Below are positions 4,092 to 35,365 of a stretch of 51,066 bases of DNA, piece after piece. The DNA lies in IMG/VR virus record IMGVR_UViG_3300020121_000362, positions 1 to 51,066 of that record. One strand, given 5' to 3'. The notes under the pieces are model-generated. The model had not been told where the DNA came from. It did no database searches and saw nothing but the letters and a program-made list of their open reading frames with translations. A program made the translations under genes and the position numbers. Numbering within the stretch: the stretch's first letter is position 1; each line of letters begins with the position of its first letter. This DNA is from a virus.

Positions 4092-4678
4092 CAGAGCTTC
4101 CGAAGAGCGAGCGCATTGATACGCCGATGCACGACTTCGAAACGGTTTCCGGCGACCGAGCTCCATTCAGAAAACATCGGACTCCCTAGACCAATGTCCT
4201 CGATCACGTAGAACCCGCCCTGGACGACCTTGTCCTGAAAATTCACGAGCGTCGCAAGTTGCGCTTGCCAAGCGTGCAGACCGTCATCGATGACAAGATC
4301 GAATGCTCGCTCCCTGAAAGCGAAGAAGAGCGCAACGGCCATCCCGTCGGTTGAATCGCAAATCCCGGTCTCGATCCTGTCTTCTTGAAACTGCGTGTCC
4401 GGTTGAACGTCCAGCCCGAGCACGGTGGCCTTGCGGCAAAAGTCACGAAACGCTCGAAGACTCCCGCCGGGGCGGTACCCGGGGTCGCAGTACGACACCA
4501 TCGAGCTCGGAGCGCCAGGTATGAGCGTGCCGATCCCGATCTCGCAAATGCGCGCCGGTCGGTCTCGCATCGAGGCGAGAATGTCTTCGTACATCCCGAC
4601 GTACTCGTTCCGAACTTTGTCGGTACCGTACTTCGTAAAAAGCAAAGACAAGGCGGTCGTAGGCTCAGCCAAGGTCAT
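4091..4678 (-). CDS. SAM-dependent methyltransferase, macrocin-O-methyltransferase-like
   Basis: 195 residues, start ATG at 4678 in an ATGA overlap with the regulator gene. Visible family marks are LFTKYGTDK near the N terminus, ICEIGIGTLIPGA (motif I with the G-x-G), VLGLDVQPDTQFQ, FDLVIDDGLHAWQAQLATL and GGFYVIEDIG. The YGTDK opening and the IDDG..H motif are typical of methyltransferases that act on sugars in antibiotic and polysaccharide pathways. With the two glycosyltransferases downstream it makes a small glycan-decoration cassette. Confidence 0.75.
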   Translation of the reverse strand: MTLAEPTTALSLLFTKYGTDKVRNEYVGMYEDILASMRDRPARICEIGIGTLIPGAPSSMVSYCDPGYRPGGSLRAFRDFCRKATVLGLDVQPDTQFQEDRIETGICDSTDGMAVALFFAFRERAFDLVIDDGLHAWQAQLATLVNFQDKVVQGGFYVIEDIGLGSPMFSEWSSVAGNRFEVVHRRINALALRKL

Positions 4679-4860
4679 GGCTCACGTTCTCCAATCCAGC
4701 TTCGGATCGCGTCGGCAACACCTTCGGCGAGTGACTTTCGTCCCTCCACGCAGCGCATTCGAAGCTTGGTCGCGAGATCGGCAGGGATCCGAACGTGAAT
4801 GCGCTCTAGCCCCTCGTCCGCGGGTGGCGGCTTCTTCTGCTCTTTGCGACGCGACGCCAT
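4675..4860 (-). CDS. Ribbon-helix-helix type DNA-binding protein
   Basis: 61 residues starting at ATG 4860 (MASRRKEQKKPPPADEG). The core GLERIHVRIPADLATKLRMR has the RHH pattern of a short beta strand (IHVRIP) followed by two helices. A longer in-frame start upstream would extend the protein through the intergenic promoter and was rejected. It heads the glycosyltransferase/methyltransferase cassette and faces the SGNH gene, so it probably controls the divergent intergenic region, where a 12-bp perfect palindrome lies (4941-4952). Target and ligand are unknown. Confidence 0.65.
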   Translation of the reverse strand: MASRRKEQKKPPPADEGLERIHVRIPADLATKLRMRCVEGRKSLAEGVADAIRSWIGEREP

Positions 4861-11903: not shown

Positions 11904-12256
11904 CGAGGCGCCTTTTGCGCATCACGACTCGACTGCGCCACGCGCACATTCAATTCAGCCGCTCTATTGTCGCCACCAGGACTGTCGTCGGGATGCCAAG
12001 TCGCCGCTAATCCCCACTTGATGAAAAGATCCTCCAGCGTAAATTCGCCGTTCTGTCTCACGTGAGCGACATCGACAAGAAATTCGCTCGCCTCACGATC
12101 CATTCCCTTGAGTTGATTGACACGCAAGTAATCACGCGCCGTGGACAACGGACGACGATGATCCAGAAAACGACCTCGAAGCACAGTCGAGTAAAGACGG
12201 AACCCGAGGTGTCGAAAAAACTCCTCTTCCTCCTGAGCGTTGAGACGTTTTTTCAT
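11900..12256 (-). CDS. Unknown helical protein coupled to the recombinase
   Basis: 118 residues from ATG 12256 (MKKRLNAQEEEEFFRHLGF), overlapping the recombinase TGA as ATGA; an open extension upstream is only a shadow of the recombinase. Charged and helical with DREASEFLVDVAHVRQNGEF. No family recognised. Confidence 0.5.
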   Translation of the reverse strand: MKKRLNAQEEEEFFRHLGFRLYSTVLRGRFLDHRRPLSTARDYLRVNQLKGMDREASEFLVDVAHVRQNGEFTLEDLFIKWGLAATWHPDDSPGGDNRAAELNVRVAQSSRDAQKAPR

Positions 12257-13362
12257 TTCGGTTCTTCCTTCTTTTTCGCTAACCCTTTCGTCGGATTGTT
12301 CTCGAACGGCGTCGCGTGCTCGATGTAGCCGCGCGCCACTTTCTCGCTCACCCAACCGCCCTGACGCATGATGTCTCGTTGTGCCGTACCTTTCTGAGCG
12401 AACGTGGTAGCGGCTCCTCGACGCAAACTGTGGCTGGCGAAACGACGCACCAAGAGCACACACGACTCGCATTCAGAAATCTCGCGCATCGACTTGTGTC
12501 CGTGGTCCGGATTCGCTGCGAGACGTTTGACGAGCCGCGAGACAGTGCGTTCACTGATCGGAAAAATCAGATCGTCGGGCTTGAACCGGTTGAGCCGAAA
12601 GTGCTCTTGGAGCGCCTTCATCGGGCAAACCACCTCGTCCTCCTGCGCGTAGCTGACCGCGTCGCGCCCCTCTTTGATCTGGTCCGTCTTGCTGCTCGGG
12701 AGATAAACCATGATCCCGTTCGAGCGCTCATGATCCTCGACCCAGGATCCGTCTTCTTCGACCTTTACGAACCTGACGTGCTCTCGTCGAATGGCGACCA
12801 GGTTGGCGCTCCGGAGCGCACAGAACCATCCGACGGTCAGCATCGCTCGGTTTCGAACGCCCTCGGCATCGGCTCCTAGACGCGCGCAGACGTCGATCAG
12901 TACCTTGATTCCGAGCGGCGCCTTCTTGGTTTGCTTCACCCCCACCGTGTTCCTGATCCCCTTGAGCGTCTGACGCACGACCCGGGCGTTCCGTACGAAA
13001 TCGAGGCCGGCCTCATCGTGGTAGTGCCCGGCGGCCGAGAGAAAGCGCGATATGCTCGAAACGCTGTAGCCCTCGGCAGCGAGCCAGCTCAGGTGGGCCG
13101 CCACGACCTCCGGTGGCGCAGGGAGGAAAGGGGCCCGGTTGGCCGTCGCCCAGGCTTGGAAGCGCGCCCAATCGCCTGCGTAGCCCCTCCGGGTGTTGTT
13201 GGCCCTGGACTGCCGCTGGAACTCCTGGGAGCGCCGGAGGTCCGCCACGAGGCCGGGAGACAGCCCGTCCGGCTGGGCAACGACGAGATCGGCGGTGAAC
13301 GCCTTCGGTTCGTCATCGTTTTTTCCAGTGTCGCCGTTACCCGCCACGGTTTGTCCGATCAT
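12253..13362 (-). CDS. Tyrosine recombinase / integrase
   Basis: 369 residues. The N-terminal core-binding domain has NNTRRGYAGDWARFQAW and AHLSWLAAEGYS. The catalytic domain carries ALRSANLVAI (first Arg), a beta-hairpin Lys in PSSKTDQIKEG, HSLRRGAATTFAQ (His-x-x-Arg), GGWVSEKVARGYIEH (Trp in place of the second His, and the nucleophile Tyr). All six positions appear intact. The start codon lies inside an inverted repeat (13350-13380), which may be an attachment core or operator. It heads the minus-strand operon that includes the HerA-like ATPase. Suggests integration or dimer resolution. Confidence 0.85.
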   Translation of the reverse strand: MIGQTVAGNGDTGKNDDEPKAFTADLVVAQPDGLSPGLVADLRRSQEFQRQSRANNTRRGYAGDWARFQAWATANRAPFLPAPPEVVAAHLSWLAAEGYSVSSISRFLSAAGHYHDEAGLDFVRNARVVRQTLKGIRNTVGVKQTKKAPLGIKVLIDVCARLGADAEGVRNRAMLTVGWFCALRSANLVAIRREHVRFVKVEEDGSWVEDHERSNGIMVYLPSSKTDQIKEGRDAVSYAQEDEVVCPMKALQEHFRLNRFKPDDLIFPISERTVSRLVKRLAANPDHGHKSMREISECESCVLLVRRFASHSLRRGAATTFAQKGTAQRDIMRQGGWVSEKVARGYIEHATPFENNPTKGLAKKKEEPK

Positions 13363-15263: not shown

Positions 15264-15411
15264 CTCTCCGTTCGGTGTGCATGACGCAAAAAGCGTCGGC
15301 TAGCGCGACCGCGGACGTGAGCAAAACTTTCGCTCGAACGGGCGCACCTAGATCTTGGAATTCATCTAAGAGTTCTAGGACGCGCTTCATGTAATCGTCT
15401 TCTCGTTTCAC
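15166..15411 (-). CDS. Unknown helical protein downstream of thyX
   Basis: 81 residues from GTG 15411, overlapping the thyX stop as GTGA. Helical (MKRVLELLDEFQDLGAPVRA, KVLLTSAVALADAFCVMHTE). Last gene of the minus-strand nucleotide operon. No family recognised. Confidence 0.5.
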   Translation of the reverse strand: MKREDDYMKRVLELLDEFQDLGAPVRAKVLLTSAVALADAFCVMHTERRATEDEFVLLARDTYKKTRELVPLVKPTPPGVN

Positions 15412-16313
15412 GTCACACCTCGATGACCTAAGATGTCGTGCTCGCCGGGGACGAGCTTCCGGAGCTGGATCCACCCATTAAAGTTGCCACAATAGTGGCC
15501 AGTACCGACACGAACCCAACCCTCAGCCCATTCGTAACGATCCACCCGAAACCGATCCAACTCCGACGGCGTCATAGGTCGCGCGGGATGTTCGAGCGGG
15601 CTCAAGTGACCAGGCCCAATGAGCCTGTCGTAGAGCGCCAAGTCTTCCTTCGGATCTCGTTTGCCGTCTTGTGTGAGGTACGAGACGCGAGCGCAGCGCG
15701 CGGCGGAGATATTCGCTGGGAAGCCTTCACCGAGCACCTCAAGATTGAACCCCTCGTCGGCCTCGACGTAGGGCGTGTGCCAATCGCCGTAGTTCACAGG
15801 ATGCGGCTCGCTTTCTCGTTTGAGCCGCATCATCCACTCCGCGGCCTTTTGAAACTCGCCCTGTGCCGCCGGGTTCACGCGAAGGTGTTCGAAGTTGTCC
15901 CAATCGGTCGCCGTAATCACGGCCGTGTGCCACGAGAACGGCTCGAGGAGACGGTTCGCGAGCTGCTTGTGGACGCCAAGCTTGGACATTCCACGGCCGT
16001 TCTCGATCGCACTGTTCATGACGTTGAACCACATCGTGCGTGCATCGGCCGCGTCTGCGCCATCGAGCACCTCATCGTGCTGCATCCCCTTTTTGTTCTT
16101 GCCAAACTGCTCTGGCACGAACGGATCGGCCTCGACGGCGGCGATGCGCTTCTCGACCGGGATCGCACGCGAGCTCGCGCTGTTGCGTGAAAGCATCCGG
16201 TGCGTATTCACTTCGGCGAGCACAATGCGCGGGAAAGTCACCTCAAAGCTCGTGAGCCGGTGGCCGGCGGGTGAGATCGAATCTGCGAGAATCTTTGCGT
16301 TGTAAGCCATCAT
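15408..16313 (-). CDS. thyX: FAD-dependent thymidylate synthase ThyX
   Basis: 301 residues, ATG 16313 in ATGA overlap with the previous gene. Makes dTMP from dUMP with methylene-tetrahydrofolate and FAD/NADPH. The ThyX signature appears as THRMLSRNSASSRA, matching RHRxxSxNxxSxR except for Thr at the first position. Further marks: QLANRLLEPFSWHTAVITAT with the conserved region around the FAD site, SAARCARVSYLTQDG and HLSPLEHPARP. Length is a little above the usual ~220-250, as in many phage ThyX. It works with the dNMP kinase and MazG-like proteins of the same operon. Confidence 0.9.
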   Translation of the reverse strand: MMAYNAKILADSISPAGHRLTSFEVTFPRIVLAEVNTHRMLSRNSASSRAIPVEKRIAAVEADPFVPEQFGKNKKGMQHDEVLDGADAADARTMWFNVMNSAIENGRGMSKLGVHKQLANRLLEPFSWHTAVITATDWDNFEHLRVNPAAQGEFQKAAEWMMRLKRESEPHPVNYGDWHTPYVEADEGFNLEVLGEGFPANISAARCARVSYLTQDGKRDPKEDLALYDRLIGPGHLSPLEHPARPMTPSELDRFRVDRYEWAEGWVRVGTGHYCGNFNGWIQLRKLVPGEHDILGHRGVT

Positions 16314-23533: not shown

Positions 23534-24994
23534 ATGGGTGCGCTCTTCGTTTCGGCGTCCGAGATTGAGCTGTACGACCTGTGCCCCAGGAAATGGGCGT
23601 TTGCATATTTAGAAGGGCTGCGCCCGCCTCCGAACGAGTCCGCTGCTCTCGGCACGCGCGTGCACAAGATTCTAGAGCAGTGGCTCAAGGACGGAACGGC
23701 TCCTGACCTACTAACGAACGAAGGCGAGATCGCTGCGAGCGGTCTTCATCTTCTGCCGCCGCCTCGGACGCCGACGCTTGTTACTGAGGAGCAGTTCAGC
23801 TTCACCTCTAGAAGGGCTTGGTATTCGGGATACAAAGATTTTCGATACCGCGACGCAAACGGGCTCCTACACGTGGGGGATCACAAAACTACAAAATCTG
23901 CCACTTGGATGAAGACGACGGACGAGATTCTGGCTCACCCCCAAGCTTTGATCTACAGCGTCGATGAGTTCTTTCGAAACCCGCAGGACGATCGTCTGTC
24001 GCTCGATTGGATCTACTATAAGACGACCGGCTCACGAAAAGCCGAACCTCGTTTTCAGATCGTGACCAAGCAAACGGTCGCTGAGATGTTTTTCGAGCAC
24101 GTCGATCCAGTCGCCGGGCAGATCACGGCGCTCCACGACACGCCGCCTGGCACGTCCGCGCTCGAGTTCCCTCCCGACTTCCGAGCCTGTGAGGCTTTCG
24201 GAGGTTGCGCGTTCCTTTCGATTTGTAACCCAACCCCAACCCAGAGAATTCAAGCAACCATGACCCAAGCCGGACTTTCCCTCACTGACAAACTTAAGGC
24301 GATGAAGAACAACCGAGCTCCGAGCCCGATCCATCCCCCGGAGGCGTTTCAGGCGCCGGCCCCGGCGGTGGCAGCTCAGATGCCTCAGATGCCCGCAATG
24401 GCGCCTCAGGCTTCGCCGATGCAATTCACCCTTCCGACGCCTCAGGGCGCGCCCGTGGCGCCGCAGGCGGTCGTGCCGGTGCAGCAACAGTTCTATCCTC
24501 CTGTCGAGGCTCAGGCGGCGCCACAGGTGCCCTTTCAGCCTGTGGCAGGGCCAGGGATGGCTCCTCAGGTGCCTTTCCAACCTGTGCCCCAACCCCCGCC
24601 CGCACCGGCAGCCACGCCCGAGCCCCCGGCCGCTCCCAAGAAGGCGCGAGGACGCCCTAAGGGTTCGACGGCCGAGGCCGCCTTGAGCAACGGCGGTTTC
24701 ATACTCTACGTCGGCTGCGCACCGATCGGTTGCAACGTGACGAACGCTCTCGAGTACGTGAACGCTGCGCACGATCAGTTGAGAGCAGCGCGTGGTGTTA
24801 CTCACTACCGGGAAATGGAATTCGGCAAAGGACCGGGCGAGCTCTGTGCGGCGCTCGAGGCGCTCCTCGCGCTCTGTGAAGGAACGCCGAACGCGCCCAC
24901 GGGTGACGTCGTGCTCGGCGGCGCGCAGATCGAGGAAGACACGGCGTCGGTTTGGTTCTCGAAGGCGGCAAAAATCGTGAGAGCGTTTCGATGA
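23534..24994 (+). CDS. Cas4/RecB-like Fe-S exonuclease with AT-hook and C-terminal domain
   Basis: 486 residues. SASEIELYDLCPRKWAFAYL (first Cys), GTRVHKILEQWLKDG (His), LLHVGDHKTTKS (the D..xK active site), HPQALIYSVDEF (QxxxY) and FRACEAFGGCAFLSIC, which supplies three more Cys for a 4Fe-4S cluster, as in Cas4 and AddB. After residue ~245 comes a Pro/Gln/Met-rich linker, a KKARGRPKGST AT-hook, and a ~110-residue C-terminal domain (FILYVGCAPIGCNVTNALEY) that I do not recognise. Likely processes DNA ends for recombination with the next gene product. Confidence 0.8.
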   Translation: MGALFVSASEIELYDLCPRKWAFAYLEGLRPPPNESAALGTRVHKILEQWLKDGTAPDLLTNEGEIAASGLHLLPPPRTPTLVTEEQFSFTSRRAWYSGYKDFRYRDANGLLHVGDHKTTKSATWMKTTDEILAHPQALIYSVDEFFRNPQDDRLSLDWIYYKTTGSRKAEPRFQIVTKQTVAEMFFEHVDPVAGQITALHDTPPGTSALEFPPDFRACEAFGGCAFLSICNPTPTQRIQATMTQAGLSLTDKLKAMKNNRAPSPIHPPEAFQAPAPAVAAQMPQMPAMAPQASPMQFTLPTPQGAPVAPQAVVPVQQQFYPPVEAQAAPQVPFQPVAGPGMAPQVPFQPVPQPPPAPAATPEPPAAPKKARGRPKGSTAEAALSNGGFILYVGCAPIGCNVTNALEYVNAAHDQLRAARGVTHYREMEFGKGPGELCAALEALLALCEGTPNAPTGDVVLGGAQIEEDTASVWFSKAAKIVRAFR

Positions 24995-25060: not shown

Positions 25061-25714
25061 ATGGGAAAAGTAGCTTTAAAACCAGCGGAGACCACGAAGG
25101 TTCCCGCGCTGATCGAAGTTCCGGATATCGAAACGCAGATCGTACCCTTTTACTTGAAGGGGTTGAGCCCACTCTTGGTCAACAACTTCAGCGAGAAGAG
25201 CAAGGCTCAGCTCGAAGGGGAGAGCACTGGCAAAATCAACAAGGGAAAACTTGGTGCCAAAGGAAAGCCTCCTCGCGATCCGGAAGCGGAGTTTCAAGCT
25301 GCTCGCGTCTTAAACGACGATGGCCGCGATTGCATCCCGGCGCGGTGGATTAAGCAAGCATTGGTCACTGCCGCCGGCATGTCCGACGTCAACATCGATC
25401 AGAAGGTCGTGCAGCGTACATTGTTCGTTCGAGGGGACTTGATCCCCATCGAATGCAAAAAGGGTCCGAGGATGCGTACCGACTGGGTACGACGAGGCCG
25501 GTGGAACGCAAAGGTGCCGATGCAGTGCTACCGAGCGGAGTTCGTCGACTGGTCGATCAAGATTCAGATCGAGTTCGAACCTAAGCTCATTTCGCATGCT
25601 TGGTTGGTTTTCTTGGTGCGCCGCGCTGGGCTCTCGGTTGGGCTCTGTGAGTGGCGTCCCGAGAAGAAAGGCGAGATGGGCCGGTTCGACATTGTGATGT
25701 CTCCGGCGAAGTAA
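25061..25714 (+). CDS. Conserved phage protein paired with the Cas4-like nuclease
   Basis: 217 residues, with AAAGGAAAAAGG before ATG 25061. FYLKGLSPLLVNNFSEKSKA near the N terminus, CIPARWIKQALVTAAGMSDV, RTLFVRGDLIPIECKKGPRM, RTDWVRR, and a C-terminal VGLCEWRPEKKGEMGRFDIV. From memory this type of protein often accompanies Cas4-like exonucleases in phage recombination modules, and its opening vaguely recalls Cas7-type RNA-binding proteins. A nucleic-acid binding or annealing role is a guess. Confidence 0.55.
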   Translation: MGKVALKPAETTKVPALIEVPDIETQIVPFYLKGLSPLLVNNFSEKSKAQLEGESTGKINKGKLGAKGKPPRDPEAEFQAARVLNDDGRDCIPARWIKQALVTAAGMSDVNIDQKVVQRTLFVRGDLIPIECKKGPRMRTDWVRRGRWNAKVPMQCYRAEFVDWSIKIQIEFEPKLISHAWLVFLVRRAGLSVGLCEWRPEKKGEMGRFDIVMSPAK

Positions 25715-25715
25715 A

Positions 25716-26066
25716 CGAGCAGTAGCCGATGCGAGCTGAGACGACATCGAGACGAGCCGATGCGACTAGATGCGAAACGAATCGCGGTAGTCGACCTGAG
25801 CCGAGCCGAGAGGCGACGACCCGAGACGAATCGACACGAGACGAACCGCAGTAACCGATTCGACCCGAGCCGAACTGATGCGAGCCGACACGACTGGACT
25901 CGAGGCGAAACGAGTCGCAGTAACCGAATCGAGCCGAGCTGATGCGAGCTGAGGTGAGCCGATCTGAACCGAAGCGAGAGGCAGTAACCGATACGAGGCG
26001 ACTCGAACCGAGCCGACACGAACCGATTCGACTCGATACGATTCGAACGGCAGTACACGAACCGAG
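25716..26066. repeat. Array of degenerate CGANN pentamers with CAGTAACC-type markers every 64-69 bp
   Basis: About 350 bp with roughly 50 CGA trinucleotides, mostly spaced by five bases (CGANN CGANN ...), with CTGAN variants. A marker resets the five-base phase: CAGTAGCC (25720), CGGTAGTC (25785), CAGTAACC (25849, 25918 and 25982) and CAGTACAC (26051), at intervals of 65, 64, 69, 64 and 69 bp. The plus strand has few T. No plus-strand gene spans it; two minus frames stay open only because NNTCG repeats avoid stops. It ends just before the AGGAG of the gene at 26081. Function unknown. Confidence 0.8.
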
Positions 26067-26080
26067 CCGCAGGAGAAAAA

Positions 26081-26647
26081 ATGACAGCAACCGCGCCGAC
26101 TGTACGCGAATTTGTGATCGGAAACCGCGACGGTTTTCGTGGCGTCAATAAAAAAGACGTCGCGCCTTTCGTGGCGGTTCTGTCTGACATCGCCAAAAAG
26201 ATAGGACCGCCAGGAGAGATCCCTGCTTTCGAATGGCGCAAAGAGCTTCTGGCTAGAGCTAAACCTAAAGACAGCCCGATACACAACAAGTTCACGTGGG
26301 ACGACAACATCGCGGGGGAGAAGTATCGCCATCACCAGGCGGCTTACTACATTCGCGATTTCGACTTTCAGTACGTGGACGAGCGTGGGAAAGCCGCCAA
26401 GAAGGTTCGGTGGCTCCAAACGATCAAACTAGTGAAATCAGACGGGCAAGCGCAGCAAAGAGCGCCGATGACCATGCCGGACGTGCTCTCGGACGAGCGC
26501 GCTCTTGAAAACGTAGTCGAAACAGCATTGGGCGAAATGCAGTCTTGGGTTCGTAGATACGAAGCTTTGGAAAGCGTCGCCAAGCTCGCGCCGATCTTCC
26601 GCGCCGCAAGGAAAGTGCTGGCTAAGACTGTTGTGCTAAAAAAGTAA
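26081..26647 (+). CDS. Conserved phage protein of unknown function
   Basis: 188 residues, AGGAG six bases before ATG 26081. Contains KFTWDDNIAGEKYRHHQAAY followed by YIRDFDFQYVDERG, a 'WDDxxAxxxYRxxQA' element found in other small phage proteins of replication modules. The C-terminal third is helical (WVRRYEALESVAKLAPIFRA). Between the pentamer array and the helicase gene. Confidence 0.5.
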   Translation: MTATAPTVREFVIGNRDGFRGVNKKDVAPFVAVLSDIAKKIGPPGEIPAFEWRKELLARAKPKDSPIHNKFTWDDNIAGEKYRHHQAAYYIRDFDFQYVDERGKAAKKVRWLQTIKLVKSDGQAQQRAPMTMPDVLSDERALENVVETALGEMQSWVRRYEALESVAKLAPIFRAARKVLAKTVVLKK

Positions 26648-26653
26648 AAATTC

Positions 26654-28438
26654 GTGTCTGACCCCATCGACCTCTCCAACATCTTCGCCGCCGTTGCCGA
26701 AGCAACCAACGGCGCGAGGCGAGGCACCGCTCTCGGTAAGATCCGAGAAGCCGAAGGCGTGCGGCACACGCCCGAGCTCGACAGGATCATCATGATCCCA
26801 CGGCGCGTGCCGCTCACGCCCGACGAGGAAGCGGAACGGATCGATCTGCTCACGAACCATCTCCGCACGCCGGGCGGAACGATGCGGCTCCGCTCGGTGC
26901 AGGCCCAAGCTCTCTGCGAGATGCACGACTACCAAGGGCTCTTCGGACCGATTCGAGTCTCCGGTGGGAAGACCCTCATCTCCTTGCTAGCGCCGCTCGT
27001 ACTCGAATCTCCACGGCCGATGCTTATCACCCCAGCGGCGCTCATCGAAAAAACAAGAACCGAAGCTAGGAAGTACGCTCAGCACTGGCAGCTCCCGCCG
27101 CTCCTTCACATGGCGAGCTACCAGGCTCTCGGTCGCGTCTCCGGCGCGGAGACGCTAGAGAAGGCGAACCCTGACCTCATCATCTGTGACGAGGCGCACA
27201 AGCTCAAGAACAAGCGCGCCGCCGTCACGAAGCGCGTCGCGAGGTACATGCACGACCACCCAGAGACGCGCATGGTCATCTTGACCGGCACGATTTCGAA
27301 GCGAAGCTTGCACGACTTCGCGCACCTCTTGCTCTGGTCCTTGAAGCTCCGGACGCCGCTTCCACGACACTGGACCGAGCTAGAGGCGTGGGCGCTTGCG
27401 ATCGACGAGCGACCGAACGCGATCGTTCCGCCTCTTCACCCAGGGGCGATCTTGATGCTTGCGACCGAGGAAGACACCGGTGACGTGACGCAACGCGCTC
27501 GCATCGCCGTTCGTAGGCGGATCAACGACACGCCTGGTGTCGTGACGGCTTCGGGTGAGGGTTGCAACGTCAGCCTTCGTGTTCAAGGTCATGTTGTCGA
27601 AACGACGGAAGTGACGACCGCTGCGTTCGAAAGACTCCGTGATCGGTGGGAAACGCCTGACGGCGGGCCCTTGAGCGACGGGTTTGCGATCTGGCGTCAC
27701 GCTCGCGAGCTCGCGCTCGGTTTCTTCTACAGATGGGAGATTCGACCGCCTGACGAGTGGCTCGAAGCGAAGAAGGCATGGTCCGCGTTCTGTCGCAAGA
27801 TCCTGAAGACTAATCAACGCCGGCTCGACTCCGAGATGCAGGTCGCACTCGCGTGCAAGGACCATCCCGAGTGGTATGGCGACCAGGAATACAAGGCGTG
27901 GGTCGCGATTCGGGATTCGTTCAAGCCGAAGACCGTCGCGGTGCCGTTCGACGACTCCGTTCTCGAGTACGTGACGAAGTGGGCCGAGAAGCACGGTGGT
28001 CTCGTTTGGTGTGAGCACATTGACTTCGCTGAGCGTTTGTCGGCGAACACGGGGCTACCTTACTTTGCGGGCGAGGGCTTAGACGCGAATGGAAATTCGG
28101 TTGAGAGCTTCGACGGCACGTGCGCTATTCTTTCGATCGAGGCAAACCGAGAGGGGCGGAACCTGCAACGCTTCTCGCATAGCCTCGTTGCCTCGCCGAT
28201 GCAGCAGGGTGACCGGTTGCAGCAGCTTCTCGCGCGTACGCACCGCGACGGGCAAGAGGCGGATGAAGTGATCTGTGATGTCGTGATTTCGTGTGCCGAA
28301 CACGTAGACGCGATGCGCATCATACAGAGCGACGCCCAGTACCAAGAGGACATCACCGGGGACCGGCAGAAACTTCAGCTCGCGGACATCATTGTCCCGA
28401 ACACGATGCACTTGAAAGGAGCGGTTTGGAACAGATGA
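26654..28438 (+). CDS. SF2 (SNF2-like) DNA helicase/translocase
   Basis: 594 residues from GTG 26654. Motifs in order: Q-type region RSVQAQALCEMHDYQGLFGP, motif I RVSGGKTLISLLAP (GGKT in place of GxGKT), Ia MLITPAALIEKTR, II LIICDEAHKLKNKRAA (DEAH), III MVILTGTISKRSLHD, V AILSIEANREGRNLQRF, VI QQGDRLQQLLARTHRDGQE. Layout resembles phage SNF2-type helicases that replace UvsW-like functions. Probable role in replication restart or recombination. Overlaps the next gene as ATGA. Confidence 0.8.
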   Translation: MSDPIDLSNIFAAVAEATNGARRGTALGKIREAEGVRHTPELDRIIMIPRRVPLTPDEEAERIDLLTNHLRTPGGTMRLRSVQAQALCEMHDYQGLFGPIRVSGGKTLISLLAPLVLESPRPMLITPAALIEKTRTEARKYAQHWQLPPLLHMASYQALGRVSGAETLEKANPDLIICDEAHKLKNKRAAVTKRVARYMHDHPETRMVILTGTISKRSLHDFAHLLLWSLKLRTPLPRHWTELEAWALAIDERPNAIVPPLHPGAILMLATEEDTGDVTQRARIAVRRRINDTPGVVTASGEGCNVSLRVQGHVVETTEVTTAAFERLRDRWETPDGGPLSDGFAIWRHARELALGFFYRWEIRPPDEWLEAKKAWSAFCRKILKTNQRRLDSEMQVALACKDHPEWYGDQEYKAWVAIRDSFKPKTVAVPFDDSVLEYVTKWAEKHGGLVWCEHIDFAERLSANTGLPYFAGEGLDANGNSVESFDGTCAILSIEANREGRNLQRFSHSLVASPMQQGDRLQQLLARTHRDGQEADEVICDVVISCAEHVDAMRIIQSDAQYQEDITGDRQKLQLADIIVPNTMHLKGAVWNR

Positions 28439-34320: not shown

Positions 34321-34634
34321 GACAGAAAATTACGCAACAACACGACCTCGACAAAAACGGAAACCCAGCGGGTGGCGAGACGCGCGCTATGGGCATCGTC
34401 ATCGACTGGCAGAACGGTCCGCTCGGTACCACCGAACTGAACGGCGCCTTCGTCGAGGGCGTCATTCTCGCGGCGATCGGCCGGCTTCAGTTCTACCAGA
34501 CGGCGAGCAACAAGAAGTTCGCCTGCCGTGAGAACGCGCTCGCGATCACGAAGCTCGAGGAAGCGCTCATGTGGTGTGAAGAGCGCACGCGAGGGCGGGT
34601 GGAGCGAGAGGTCGAGGGGACGAACACGCCATGA
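34317..34634 (+). CDS. Tad1/Acb2 hook-domain-like protein (candidate cyclic-nucleotide sponge)
   Basis: 105 residues, ATG 34317. The C-terminal half, FACRENALAITKLEEALMWC and RTRGRVEREVEGTNTP, follows the pattern of the Acb2/Tad1 hook domain (ExxLAITKLEEAxMWxxxR...VEGT). Proteins with this domain bind signal nucleotides made by CBASS and Thoeris defence and block them. The N-terminal part (AMGIVIDWQNGPLGTTELNG) may be the Tad1-type extension. Assignment rests on remembered family pattern, not on a search. Neighbours are small accessory genes, which fits a counter-defence role. Confidence 0.55.
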   Translation: MRQKITQQHDLDKNGNPAGGETRAMGIVIDWQNGPLGTTELNGAFVEGVILAAIGRLQFYQTASNKKFACRENALAITKLEEALMWCEERTRGRVEREVEGTNTP

Positions 34635-35365
34635 GCTACGGCAACATAATCGGATGTGACCTGTGCCCTGCCACGGGATTGCACAAAGAACTGAAGACCG
34701 GAGAATTCGAGCAGATCGATATCAGAATCGATCGTCGATTCTCCGACGATGACGCTGAGGACAGAGTGCATGCCGCCGGCATTCTTTGTAAAAAGTGCGC
34801 CGTTCCTTTTGTCGAGCTCGCGCGAAAACTGTCATCGGTCGATCTGAAAAAGCGCAGCAAAGTGTTGGACGAACGGATCATGGAACTCATCCGTAAGGAC
34901 GAGGGGGGGCACATGATCCAAATTTACCTTGCGCACCCACTCTCCGCCCCCACCCTCGAAGGCATCAACGAGAACCGCCGCAAGGCCGCCAAGTGGGCCG
35001 CGTGGCTCTGGCGTCAAGGCTTCGCCGTCGAGTGCTCATGGCTCGTAGCGACGCAAGAGCTCGAGGAGACGCCCGAGAACCGCGCGCTCGGCCTCAAGTC
35101 CGACTGCGAGCAGGTCCGCCGGTGCGACGTCATGGTCCTCTGCGGGCCTCGGATCTCGAGCGGCATGCTGCTCGAGGCGAGCGCGGCGAAGGTCATCATC
35201 GACTTCACGTACATCCGTATGGATCTGCCGCACGACATCGGTTGGCGGCACGGGCAGCCGATTACGTTCGAGGAAGTCCAGAAGCGAGTTGCGGTAGAGG
35301 CCGAGCACGCGGCGCAGGCGGGTCGGTCCTACGCCGCCGAATTGGCCGAGACGGGCGGAGGGTAG
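34631..35365 (+). CDS. Zinc-binding N-terminal part fused to nucleoside deoxyribosyltransferase-like (DUF4406) domain
   Basis: 244 residues as one open frame from ATG 34631. Residues 1-93 carry CDLCPATG and LCKKCAVPF (two Cys pairs). A second start, ATG 34913, preceded by a GAGGGGGGG run, opens a complete domain by itself: MIQIYLAHPLSAPTLEGINE (phosphate loop), RQGFAVECSWLVATQELEET and CDVMVLCGPRISSGMLLEAS, as in nucleoside 2-deoxyribosyltransferase/DUF4406 proteins. The first part is A/T-richer than the second, so these may be two genes joined by an indel in seven G. Might act on nucleotides or NAD-related signals. Confidence 0.55.
   Translation: MSYGNIIGCDLCPATGLHKELKTGEFEQIDIRIDRRFSDDDAEDRVHAAGILCKKCAVPFVELARKLSSVDLKKRSKVLDERIMELIRKDEGGHMIQIYLAHPLSAPTLEGINENRRKAAKWAAWLWRQGFAVECSWLVATQELEETPENRALGLKSDCEQVRRCDVMVLCGPRISSGMLLEASAAKVIIDFTYIRMDLPHDIGWRHGQPITFEEVQKRVAVEAEHAAQAGRSYAAELAETGGG

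What the first reader, a model, noticed from the sequence alone, without database searches (positions are those of the whole stretch)
25716..26066. Degenerate CGANN pentamer array with phase-resetting CAGTAACC markers
About 50 CGA triplets in 350 bp, mostly every five bases, with a CAGTAACC-like marker at 25720, 25785, 25849, 25918, 25982 and 26051 (spacing 65, 64, 69, 64, 69). Units are not identical, so this is neither CRISPR nor a simple satellite; the five-base period is kept while the other bases vary, which suggests selection for a repeated short protein- or RNA-recognition element. It lies between two replication/recombination genes and is strongly strand-biased (few T on the plus strand). 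Possible roles: origin or partition site, recombinase or SSB loading array, or a transcribed decoy RNA.
Basis: seen in the sequence. Interest (0 to 1): 0.82.

Follow-up and report, generated by a model that had tools for sequence, protein, structure and literature searches.

The report
Phage VIPR guide-RNA array, CGA-type variant
The odd five-base repeat array is most likely a row of about five guide RNAs beside a Cas7-like protein gene: a VIPR system, which phages use to silence rival phages, in an unusual dialect where the fixed triplet is CGA instead of the published GGY.

Summary
The array is real. There are 51 CGA in 366 bp, and 33 CGA pairs lie exactly 5 bp apart (shuffles 3.1±1.7, maximum 11). 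Markers reset the phase by −1. It fills the whole gap between two phage genes.

The upstream gene (25061-25714, phrog_4652) is a Vipr. A seven-protein profile hits solved SUSP1 Vipr (36pp, E=1.4e-16), and every top fold match is a CRISPR Cas7-family RAMP. All 11 phrog_4652 loci read here carry a period-5 array beside the gene, fixed triplet CGA in five and GGY or GGY-like in six.

The array is therefore best read as VIPR guide RNAs (vrRNAs): fixed triplets held by Vipr, NN dinucleotides pairing with DNA under a 1-nt skip (preprint PMC13142463). Related phages L015 and L038 support this: array flanks 94-97% identical, every CGA kept, but NN identity 6-7 of 28. One L038 guide matches L015's tape-measure gene at 21/22 bases under the 1-nt rule, skips at wobble.

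No target was found for the window's own guides; expression is untested. The CGA dialect appears to have arisen at least twice. The preprint's "related consensus" figure, unreadable here, may already include it. Verdict: new variant of a known kind.

The parts
25061..25714 (+). vipr gene: 217-aa Vipr homologue (phrog_4652), Cas7-like RAMP
   Evidence: phrog_4652 E=5.5e-18; A1 profile hits PDB 36pp_D SUSP1 Vipr E=1.4e-16, the window protein alone E=6.6e-4; AF2 model pLDDT 76.7, all Foldseek PDB hits at E<=1e-3 are Cas7-family RAMPs
25715..26080 (+). whole vrRNA array: degenerate CGANN pentamers with boundary markers
   Evidence: period-5 test; conserved position beside vipr in relatives
25718..25782 (+). 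marker AGCAG-TAGC and guide A (imperfect, a 6-nt unit and an AGA unit)
   Evidence: sequence
25783..25846 (+). marker CGCGG-TAGT and guide B (imperfect, steps of 7 and 3)
   Evidence: sequence
25847..25915 (+). marker CGCAG-TAAC (25847-25855) and guide C, 12 units: TT CC GC AC TG GC CA CT CT GG AA GT
25916..25979 (+). marker CGCAG-TAAC (25916-25924) and guide D, 11 units: AT GC GC TG GC GG GC TC AC AG GA
25980..26048 (+). marker GGCAG-TAAC (25980-25988) and guide E, 12 units: TA GG CT AC GC CA AC TT CT TA TT AC
26049..26080 (+). last marker GGCAG-TACA, two residual units, and the ribosome-binding site of the next gene (CAGGAGAAAAA)
   Evidence: sequence
26081..26647 (+). candidate vipr-accessory protein (vap), 188 aa, phrog_15946; function unknown
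   Evidence: same family sits beside vipr in L045, L046, ODay, UmaThurman and Saal

Best explanation
The array is the guide-RNA (vrRNA) array of a phage VIPR system that uses a CGA/NN (more exactly YGA/NN) repeat instead of GGY/NN. It is transcribed from the + strand into guides of about 11-12 pentamers, delimited by SGCAG-TAAC markers. Cas7-like Vipr subunits (25061-25714) oligomerise on the RNA, one per pentamer, holding the fixed triplet. The exposed NN dinucleotides pair with double-stranded DNA in the pattern NNxNNx, skipping one target base per unit. Binding would repress genes of competing phages or other mobile elements. Shown here: the array, the Vipr homology and fold, the conserved association, NN hypervariability with CGA constancy, and one natural guide-target pair for a CGA-type array in another phage. 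Inferred from the published system: transcription, oligomerisation, DNA binding and repression in this phage. The targets of this phage's guides are unknown.
For: Vipr by sequence; RAMP fold. Period-5 array beside phrog_4652 in 11 of 11 loci (window, L025, L031, L036, L040 with CGA; L045, L046, L064, ODay, UmaThurman, Saal with GGY or GGY-like). Shared boundary marker GCAG + 4 nt in CGA and GGY relatives. L015/L038: flanks 187/200 and 193/200 identical, CGA 14/14 kept, NN 6-7 of 28. L038 guide matches L015 tape-measure gene 21/22 with 1-nt skip, skips at codon position 3, while L038's own copy matches only about 17/22. Published system.
Against: No target for the window's own guides was found in its own genome, in IMG/VR exact patterns or in related records. 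Expression and processing are untested. The published triplet is GGY, not CGA (a 'related consensus' is mentioned; its figure could not be read). No structured 3' tail was recognised; the array RNA folds no better than shuffles (z -1.1). Guides A and B contain indels. The L038-L015 match is one case; after allowing for about 27 guides its global significance is only about 0.01-0.05.
Confidence: 0.88

Rival explanations
1. A relic VIPR array: the locus is homologous but the guides are no longer functional (guides A and B carry indels, some triplets read TGA, GGA or AGA).
For: Slips in guides A and B; no target found.
Against: Guides C-E keep G and A at 35/35 over 35 units; the vipr and vap reading frames are intact; T at the first position also occurs in arrays of relatives.
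Confidence: 0.08
2. A cis-acting element bound by a ring or filament protein (TRAP-like leader RNA, replication origin, partition or SSB/recombinase loading site), in which NN is neutral filler.
For: Triplet + NN in runs of 11-12 resembles TRAP sites; exonuclease, SNF2-like helicase, endonuclease VII and DNA polymerase genes lie nearby.
Against: The neighbour is a Cas7-like Vipr, not TRAP. The same arrays occur in terminase, tail and lysogeny contexts. The L038 guide matches a rival phage at 21/22.
Confidence: 0.03
3. A decayed microsatellite or satellite, or a decayed coding gene.
For: Most CGANN hits in the viral and genome collections are microsatellites.
Against: Adjacent NN are identical in 1 of 29 pairs in the window array (L044 copy); all CGA are kept while NN turns over in L015/L038; five-base period with -1 steps is incompatible with a maintained reading frame; relatives carry arrays here.
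Confidence: 0.01

Closest known systems
VIPR systems (Viral Interference Programmable Repeat; preprint PMC13142463; Escherichia phage SUSP1, Pseudomonas fulva prophage)
   Same: Vipr homologue; phage-borne; long intergenic non-coding arrays beside vipr; pentanucleotide repeats with a fixed triplet and hypervariable NN; guides of 11-12 units (published range 9-16); small accessory gene; in a related CGA-type phage, a target with 1-nt skip at the wobble position.
   Different: Fixed triplet CGA (YGA) instead of GGY; guides head to tail in one gap, separated by 9-nt SGCAG-TAAC markers rather than by a recognised structured tail; accessory protein phrog_15946 could not be matched to vap1-6 with what was readable.
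VIPR-like loci of Gordonia phages ODay and UmaThurman and Mycobacterium phage Saal (found here)
   Same: Vipr of the same clade, same accessory family, same GCAG + 4 nt boundary marker.
   Different: Repeats are NNGGY; 30% (UmaThurman, Saal) to 34% (ODay) Vipr identity.
Class 1 CRISPR Cas7 (Csm3/Csm5, type VII Cas7)
   Same: RAMP fold by Foldseek; backbone protein that disrupts guide-target pairing periodically (published knowledge).
   Different: No CRISPR repeats, no cas operon; the guide is read discontinuously.
TRAP binding sites, (G/U)AGNN x 11 (Bacillus trp leader)
   Same: Triplet plus two-base spacer, 11-12 per site.
   Different: No TRAP homologue here; NN appears to carry the information rather than being a spacer.

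Membership tests
VIPR system | Vipr protein (homology to SUSP1 Vipr) | tested here: met
   A1 profile against PDB: 36pp_D E=1.4e-16; window protein alone 6.6e-4
VIPR system | RAMP fold (RRM core, thumb, G-loop) | tested here: met
   AF2 pLDDT 76.7, pTM 0.72; all 44 Foldseek PDB hits at E<=1e-3 are Cas7-family RAMPs; TM-scores are moderate (0.37-0.51) and thumb and G-loop were not mapped
VIPR system | Tandem pentanucleotide repeats, fixed triplet + hypervariable NN, 9-16 units per guide | tested here: met
   11-12 units in guides C, D and E; NN hypervariable between L015 and L038
VIPR system | The fixed triplet is GGY | tested here: not met
   CGA/YGA here. The preprint allows 'a related consensus', so this makes it a variant, not an exclusion; fig. 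S17 could not be read
VIPR system | 1-nt skip (NNxNNx) DNA targets | tested here: inconclusive
   Supported for CGA-type L038 on L015 (21/22); no target for the window's guides
VIPR system | Invariable structured 3' tail after the repeats | tested here: inconclusive
   9-nt markers between guides, no Rfam match, no fold beyond shuffles; described for type II, other types differ
VIPR system | vap gene in the locus | tested here: inconclusive
   Conserved small neighbour phrog_15946; vap1-6 sequences not available here
VIPR system | vrRNA expressed and bound by Vipr; target repression | not testable with these tools
   needs RNA-seq, pull-down, reporter assays
CRISPR array | Near-identical repeats of about 20-50 bp separating contiguous spacers, with cas genes | tested here: not met
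   only 9-nt markers; no cas family among the ORFs from 20 kb to 34 kb that were searched
Simple satellite / microsatellite | Neighbouring units alike through slippage | tested here: not met
   adjacent NN identical in 1 of 29 pairs in the window's array (L044 copy), 40 of 379 over all degenerate arrays

The most novel reading that the evidence does not exclude
The guide 'grammar' of VIPR can switch: the fixed triplet changed between GGY and YGA at least twice in separate Vipr lineages while the NNxNNx decoding and the GCAG boundary marker stayed. This would give co-infecting phages mutually unreadable (orthogonal) guide dialects and point to Vipr residues that read the triplet.
Probability: 0.4. 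Interest if true: 0.75.

Novelty: new variant of a known kind. Interest (0 to 1): 0.6.

Why it matters
VIPR is a newly described RNA-guided system (preprint, April 2026) proposed as the forerunner of CRISPR. A CGA-type dialect in at least two Vipr lineages shows that the fixed part of the code is not universal. It widens how such arrays must be searched for, since a GGY-only search misses this one, and it may offer orthogonal Vipr/guide pairs for programmable repression. The L015/L038 pair gives independent comparative evidence that NN is the fast-evolving, target-specifying part and that related phages are targets. The markers suggest how head-to-tail guides are delimited.

Tried and rejected
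TRAP-like leader: first analogy, dropped once the neighbour proved Cas7-like. Scan for degenerate CGANN arrays in 84,980 bacterial/archaeal species genomes: 6 hits, nearly all decayed microsatellites; the pattern required 10 perfect units and would miss arrays like this one. Targets of window guides: own genome, 9-unit exact patterns in IMG/VR for C, D and E, an 8-unit 3' pattern for C, and searches with up to 3 mismatches in related records. Nothing beyond chance; the best, guide D with 10 of 11 units at the start of an ssb gene in L059/L061, has its skip bases at codon position 1 and is within the chance expectation of about 0.3. Single-sequence AlphaFold was useless (pLDDT 41); the 7-row alignment worked. 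A profile search of IMG/VR with A1 failed for lack of conserved stretches. Rfam found nothing. Codon-phase likelihood of NN favours codon positions 1-2 over 2-3 by only about 7 log units, mostly from L025: weak support. The L011 and L003 CGA arrays were left out of the argument: few NN types, no vipr seen.

Full report
1. What is there. The gap between ORF 25061-25714 and ORF 26081-26647 is 366 bp long and consists of pentamers CGANN. The period-5 signal is 33 CGA pairs against 3.05 +/- 1.7 in shuffles (maximum 11), and nothing else in the 51-kb contig approaches it. In the three intact segments the unit is [C29/T5/G1]-G35-A35-N-N with near-uniform N. Segments are 64-69 nt: a 9-nt marker [C/G]GCAG-TAAC followed by 11 or 12 units. 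Segments A and B contain small slips. The window is an IMG/VR virus record of 51,066 bp. A near-identical relative, IMGVR_UViG_3300020122_000503, carries the identical array.

2. The array follows one gene. Scanning IMG/VR for nine perfect CGANN units gave 42 loci, most of them plain microsatellites. The truly degenerate arrays, with NN effectively random, sit beside a phrog_4652 gene in L025, L031, L036 and L040, as in the window. L038 is the same contig as L031, and L015 is a relative of L038. Conversely, starting from the protein, every phrog_4652 locus examined had a period-5 array close by: L045, L046 (an AT-rich phage), Gordonia phage ODay, Gordonia phage UmaThurman, Mycobacterium phage Saal and L064. 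In these the fixed triplet is GGY or GGY-like. The surrounding genes differ (replication, terminase, tail, lysogeny), so vipr + array looks like the unit that travels (inference).

3. The protein. A profile of seven phrog_4652 proteins finds one PDB chain, 36pp_D 'SUSP1 Vipr protein', at 1.4e-16. The L031 protein alone finds it at 6e-10 over nearly its full length; the window protein alone at 6.6e-4. AlphaFold2 with that alignment (pLDDT 76.7, pTM 0.72) matches CRISPR Cas7-family RAMPs in all 44 hits at E<=1e-3 (Csm3/Csm5, type VII Cas7, Cas7-11, one Cmr complex). TM-scores are moderate (0.37-0.51).

4. The known system. PMC13142463 reports VIPR: a Vipr RAMP plus vrRNAs of 9-16 YNNGG repeats. 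NN pairs with double-stranded DNA as NNxNNx (1-nt skip, usually the codon wobble base), and the complex represses competing phages. [quoted passage not shown] S17) and several array architectures, including staggered arrays (fig. S18). Supplements could not be read here.

5. Independent tests of that reading. (a) L015 and L038 are related phages (91% over 6.4 kb) with an array at the same place. The 200-bp flanks are 187/200 and 193/200 identical; all CGA triplets are kept; NN bases agree at 6-7 of 28, which is chance. So the triplet is constrained and NN turns over. (b) All guides were tested against all fetched sequences at skips of 0, 1, 2, 4 and 5. The one strong natural match, setting aside the guide D sites that the pattern scan itself had fetched, is the L038 guide, units 7-17, on L015 rc 4688-4720 in the tape-measure gene: 21/22 bases at skip 1. 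For this guide on L015, skips 0, 2, 3 and 4 gave at most 17/22. Unit-order shuffles never reach 21 (0 of 3000 against L015, 0 of 150 against all loci). The skipped bases are all codon position 3, and L038's own copy of the site matches only about 17/22. Allowing for about 27 guides, I put the global significance at about 0.01-0.05; it agrees with the published rule in three respects (skip length, wobble phase, rival rather than self). (c) NN composition over 347 units fits codon positions 1-2 better than 2-3 by about 7 log units, mostly from one phage: weak.

6. Dialect switch. In a tree of 11 Viprs the window protein groups with GGY-type proteins (99/97), apart from the CGA clade L025/L036/L040 (98/97); L031 (CGA) pairs with L064 (GGY) at 82/86. 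Well-supported branches force at least two changes of the CGA label, which could be gains or losses. The boundary marker bridges both dialects: GGCAG-NNNN-GGY in relatives and [C/G]GCAG-TAAC-CGA here, most spacings being 14 + 5k nt. Two of the window's markers read GGCAG although its repeats are CGA, which suggests a GGY ancestor (inference).

7. Limits. No target was found for the window's own guides; the host is unknown and the databases may not hold the target. Expression, processing and Vipr binding are untested. No structured 3' tail was found. The candidate vap (phrog_15946) is conserved beside vipr in this clade but could not be matched to vap1-6. The flanking exonuclease (23534-24994) and SNF2-like helicase (26654-28438) could be vaps, since the preprint reports nuclease and helicase vaps in types III-V, but the GenBank relatives of this clade lack them next to vipr, so I regard them as replication or recombination genes.

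8. Verdict. It is a new variant of a known, very recent kind, with the caveat that the preprint's unread supplement may already contain this consensus.

Noticed in passing
L055 (Gordonia phage UmaThurman NC_031249) 4131-4454: Annotated gp40 'hypothetical protein' lies inside a NNGGY array; probably a spurious gene call on vrRNAs.
   Followed up: partly
L056 (Mycobacterium phage Saal) 3097-3345 and gp51/gp52: Unannotated NNGGC array upstream of the Vipr homologue gp51; the window's Vipr finds 27 Mycobacterium, 5 Gordonia and 1 Pseudomonas phage records, so VIPR-like loci seem common in these phages.
   Followed up: partly
L064 10585-11160: GGY array interrupted by strong hairpins with CTCGAAACT loops and repeated ACGC/ACGT-type ends; possibly a different vrRNA boundary (ribozyme-like?).
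   Followed up: no
L036 4933-5421, L025 7646-8158, L040 1929-2438: A second accessory protein family (alignment A3), not detectably related to phrog_15946, neighbours vipr in the CGA clade.
   Followed up: partly
L025, L031, L036, L040 array 3' ends: CGA arrays of this other group end in CGAAACGAAACG(T)-like sequence, in L031 as CGAAACGTTCG between guides; a likely tail or boundary different from the window's GCAG marker.
   Followed up: no
L059 5460-5491 (-) and L061: Guide D of the window matches 10 of 11 units with 1-nt skip at the start of an ssb gene; within chance expectation, skips not at wobble.
   Followed up: partly
window 12253-13362 (-), 15408-16313 (-), 34631-35365 (+): Integrase-like, thymidylate synthase and nucleoside deoxyribosyltransferase genes: a phage with nucleotide metabolism genes and a possible lysogenic lifestyle.
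   Followed up: no
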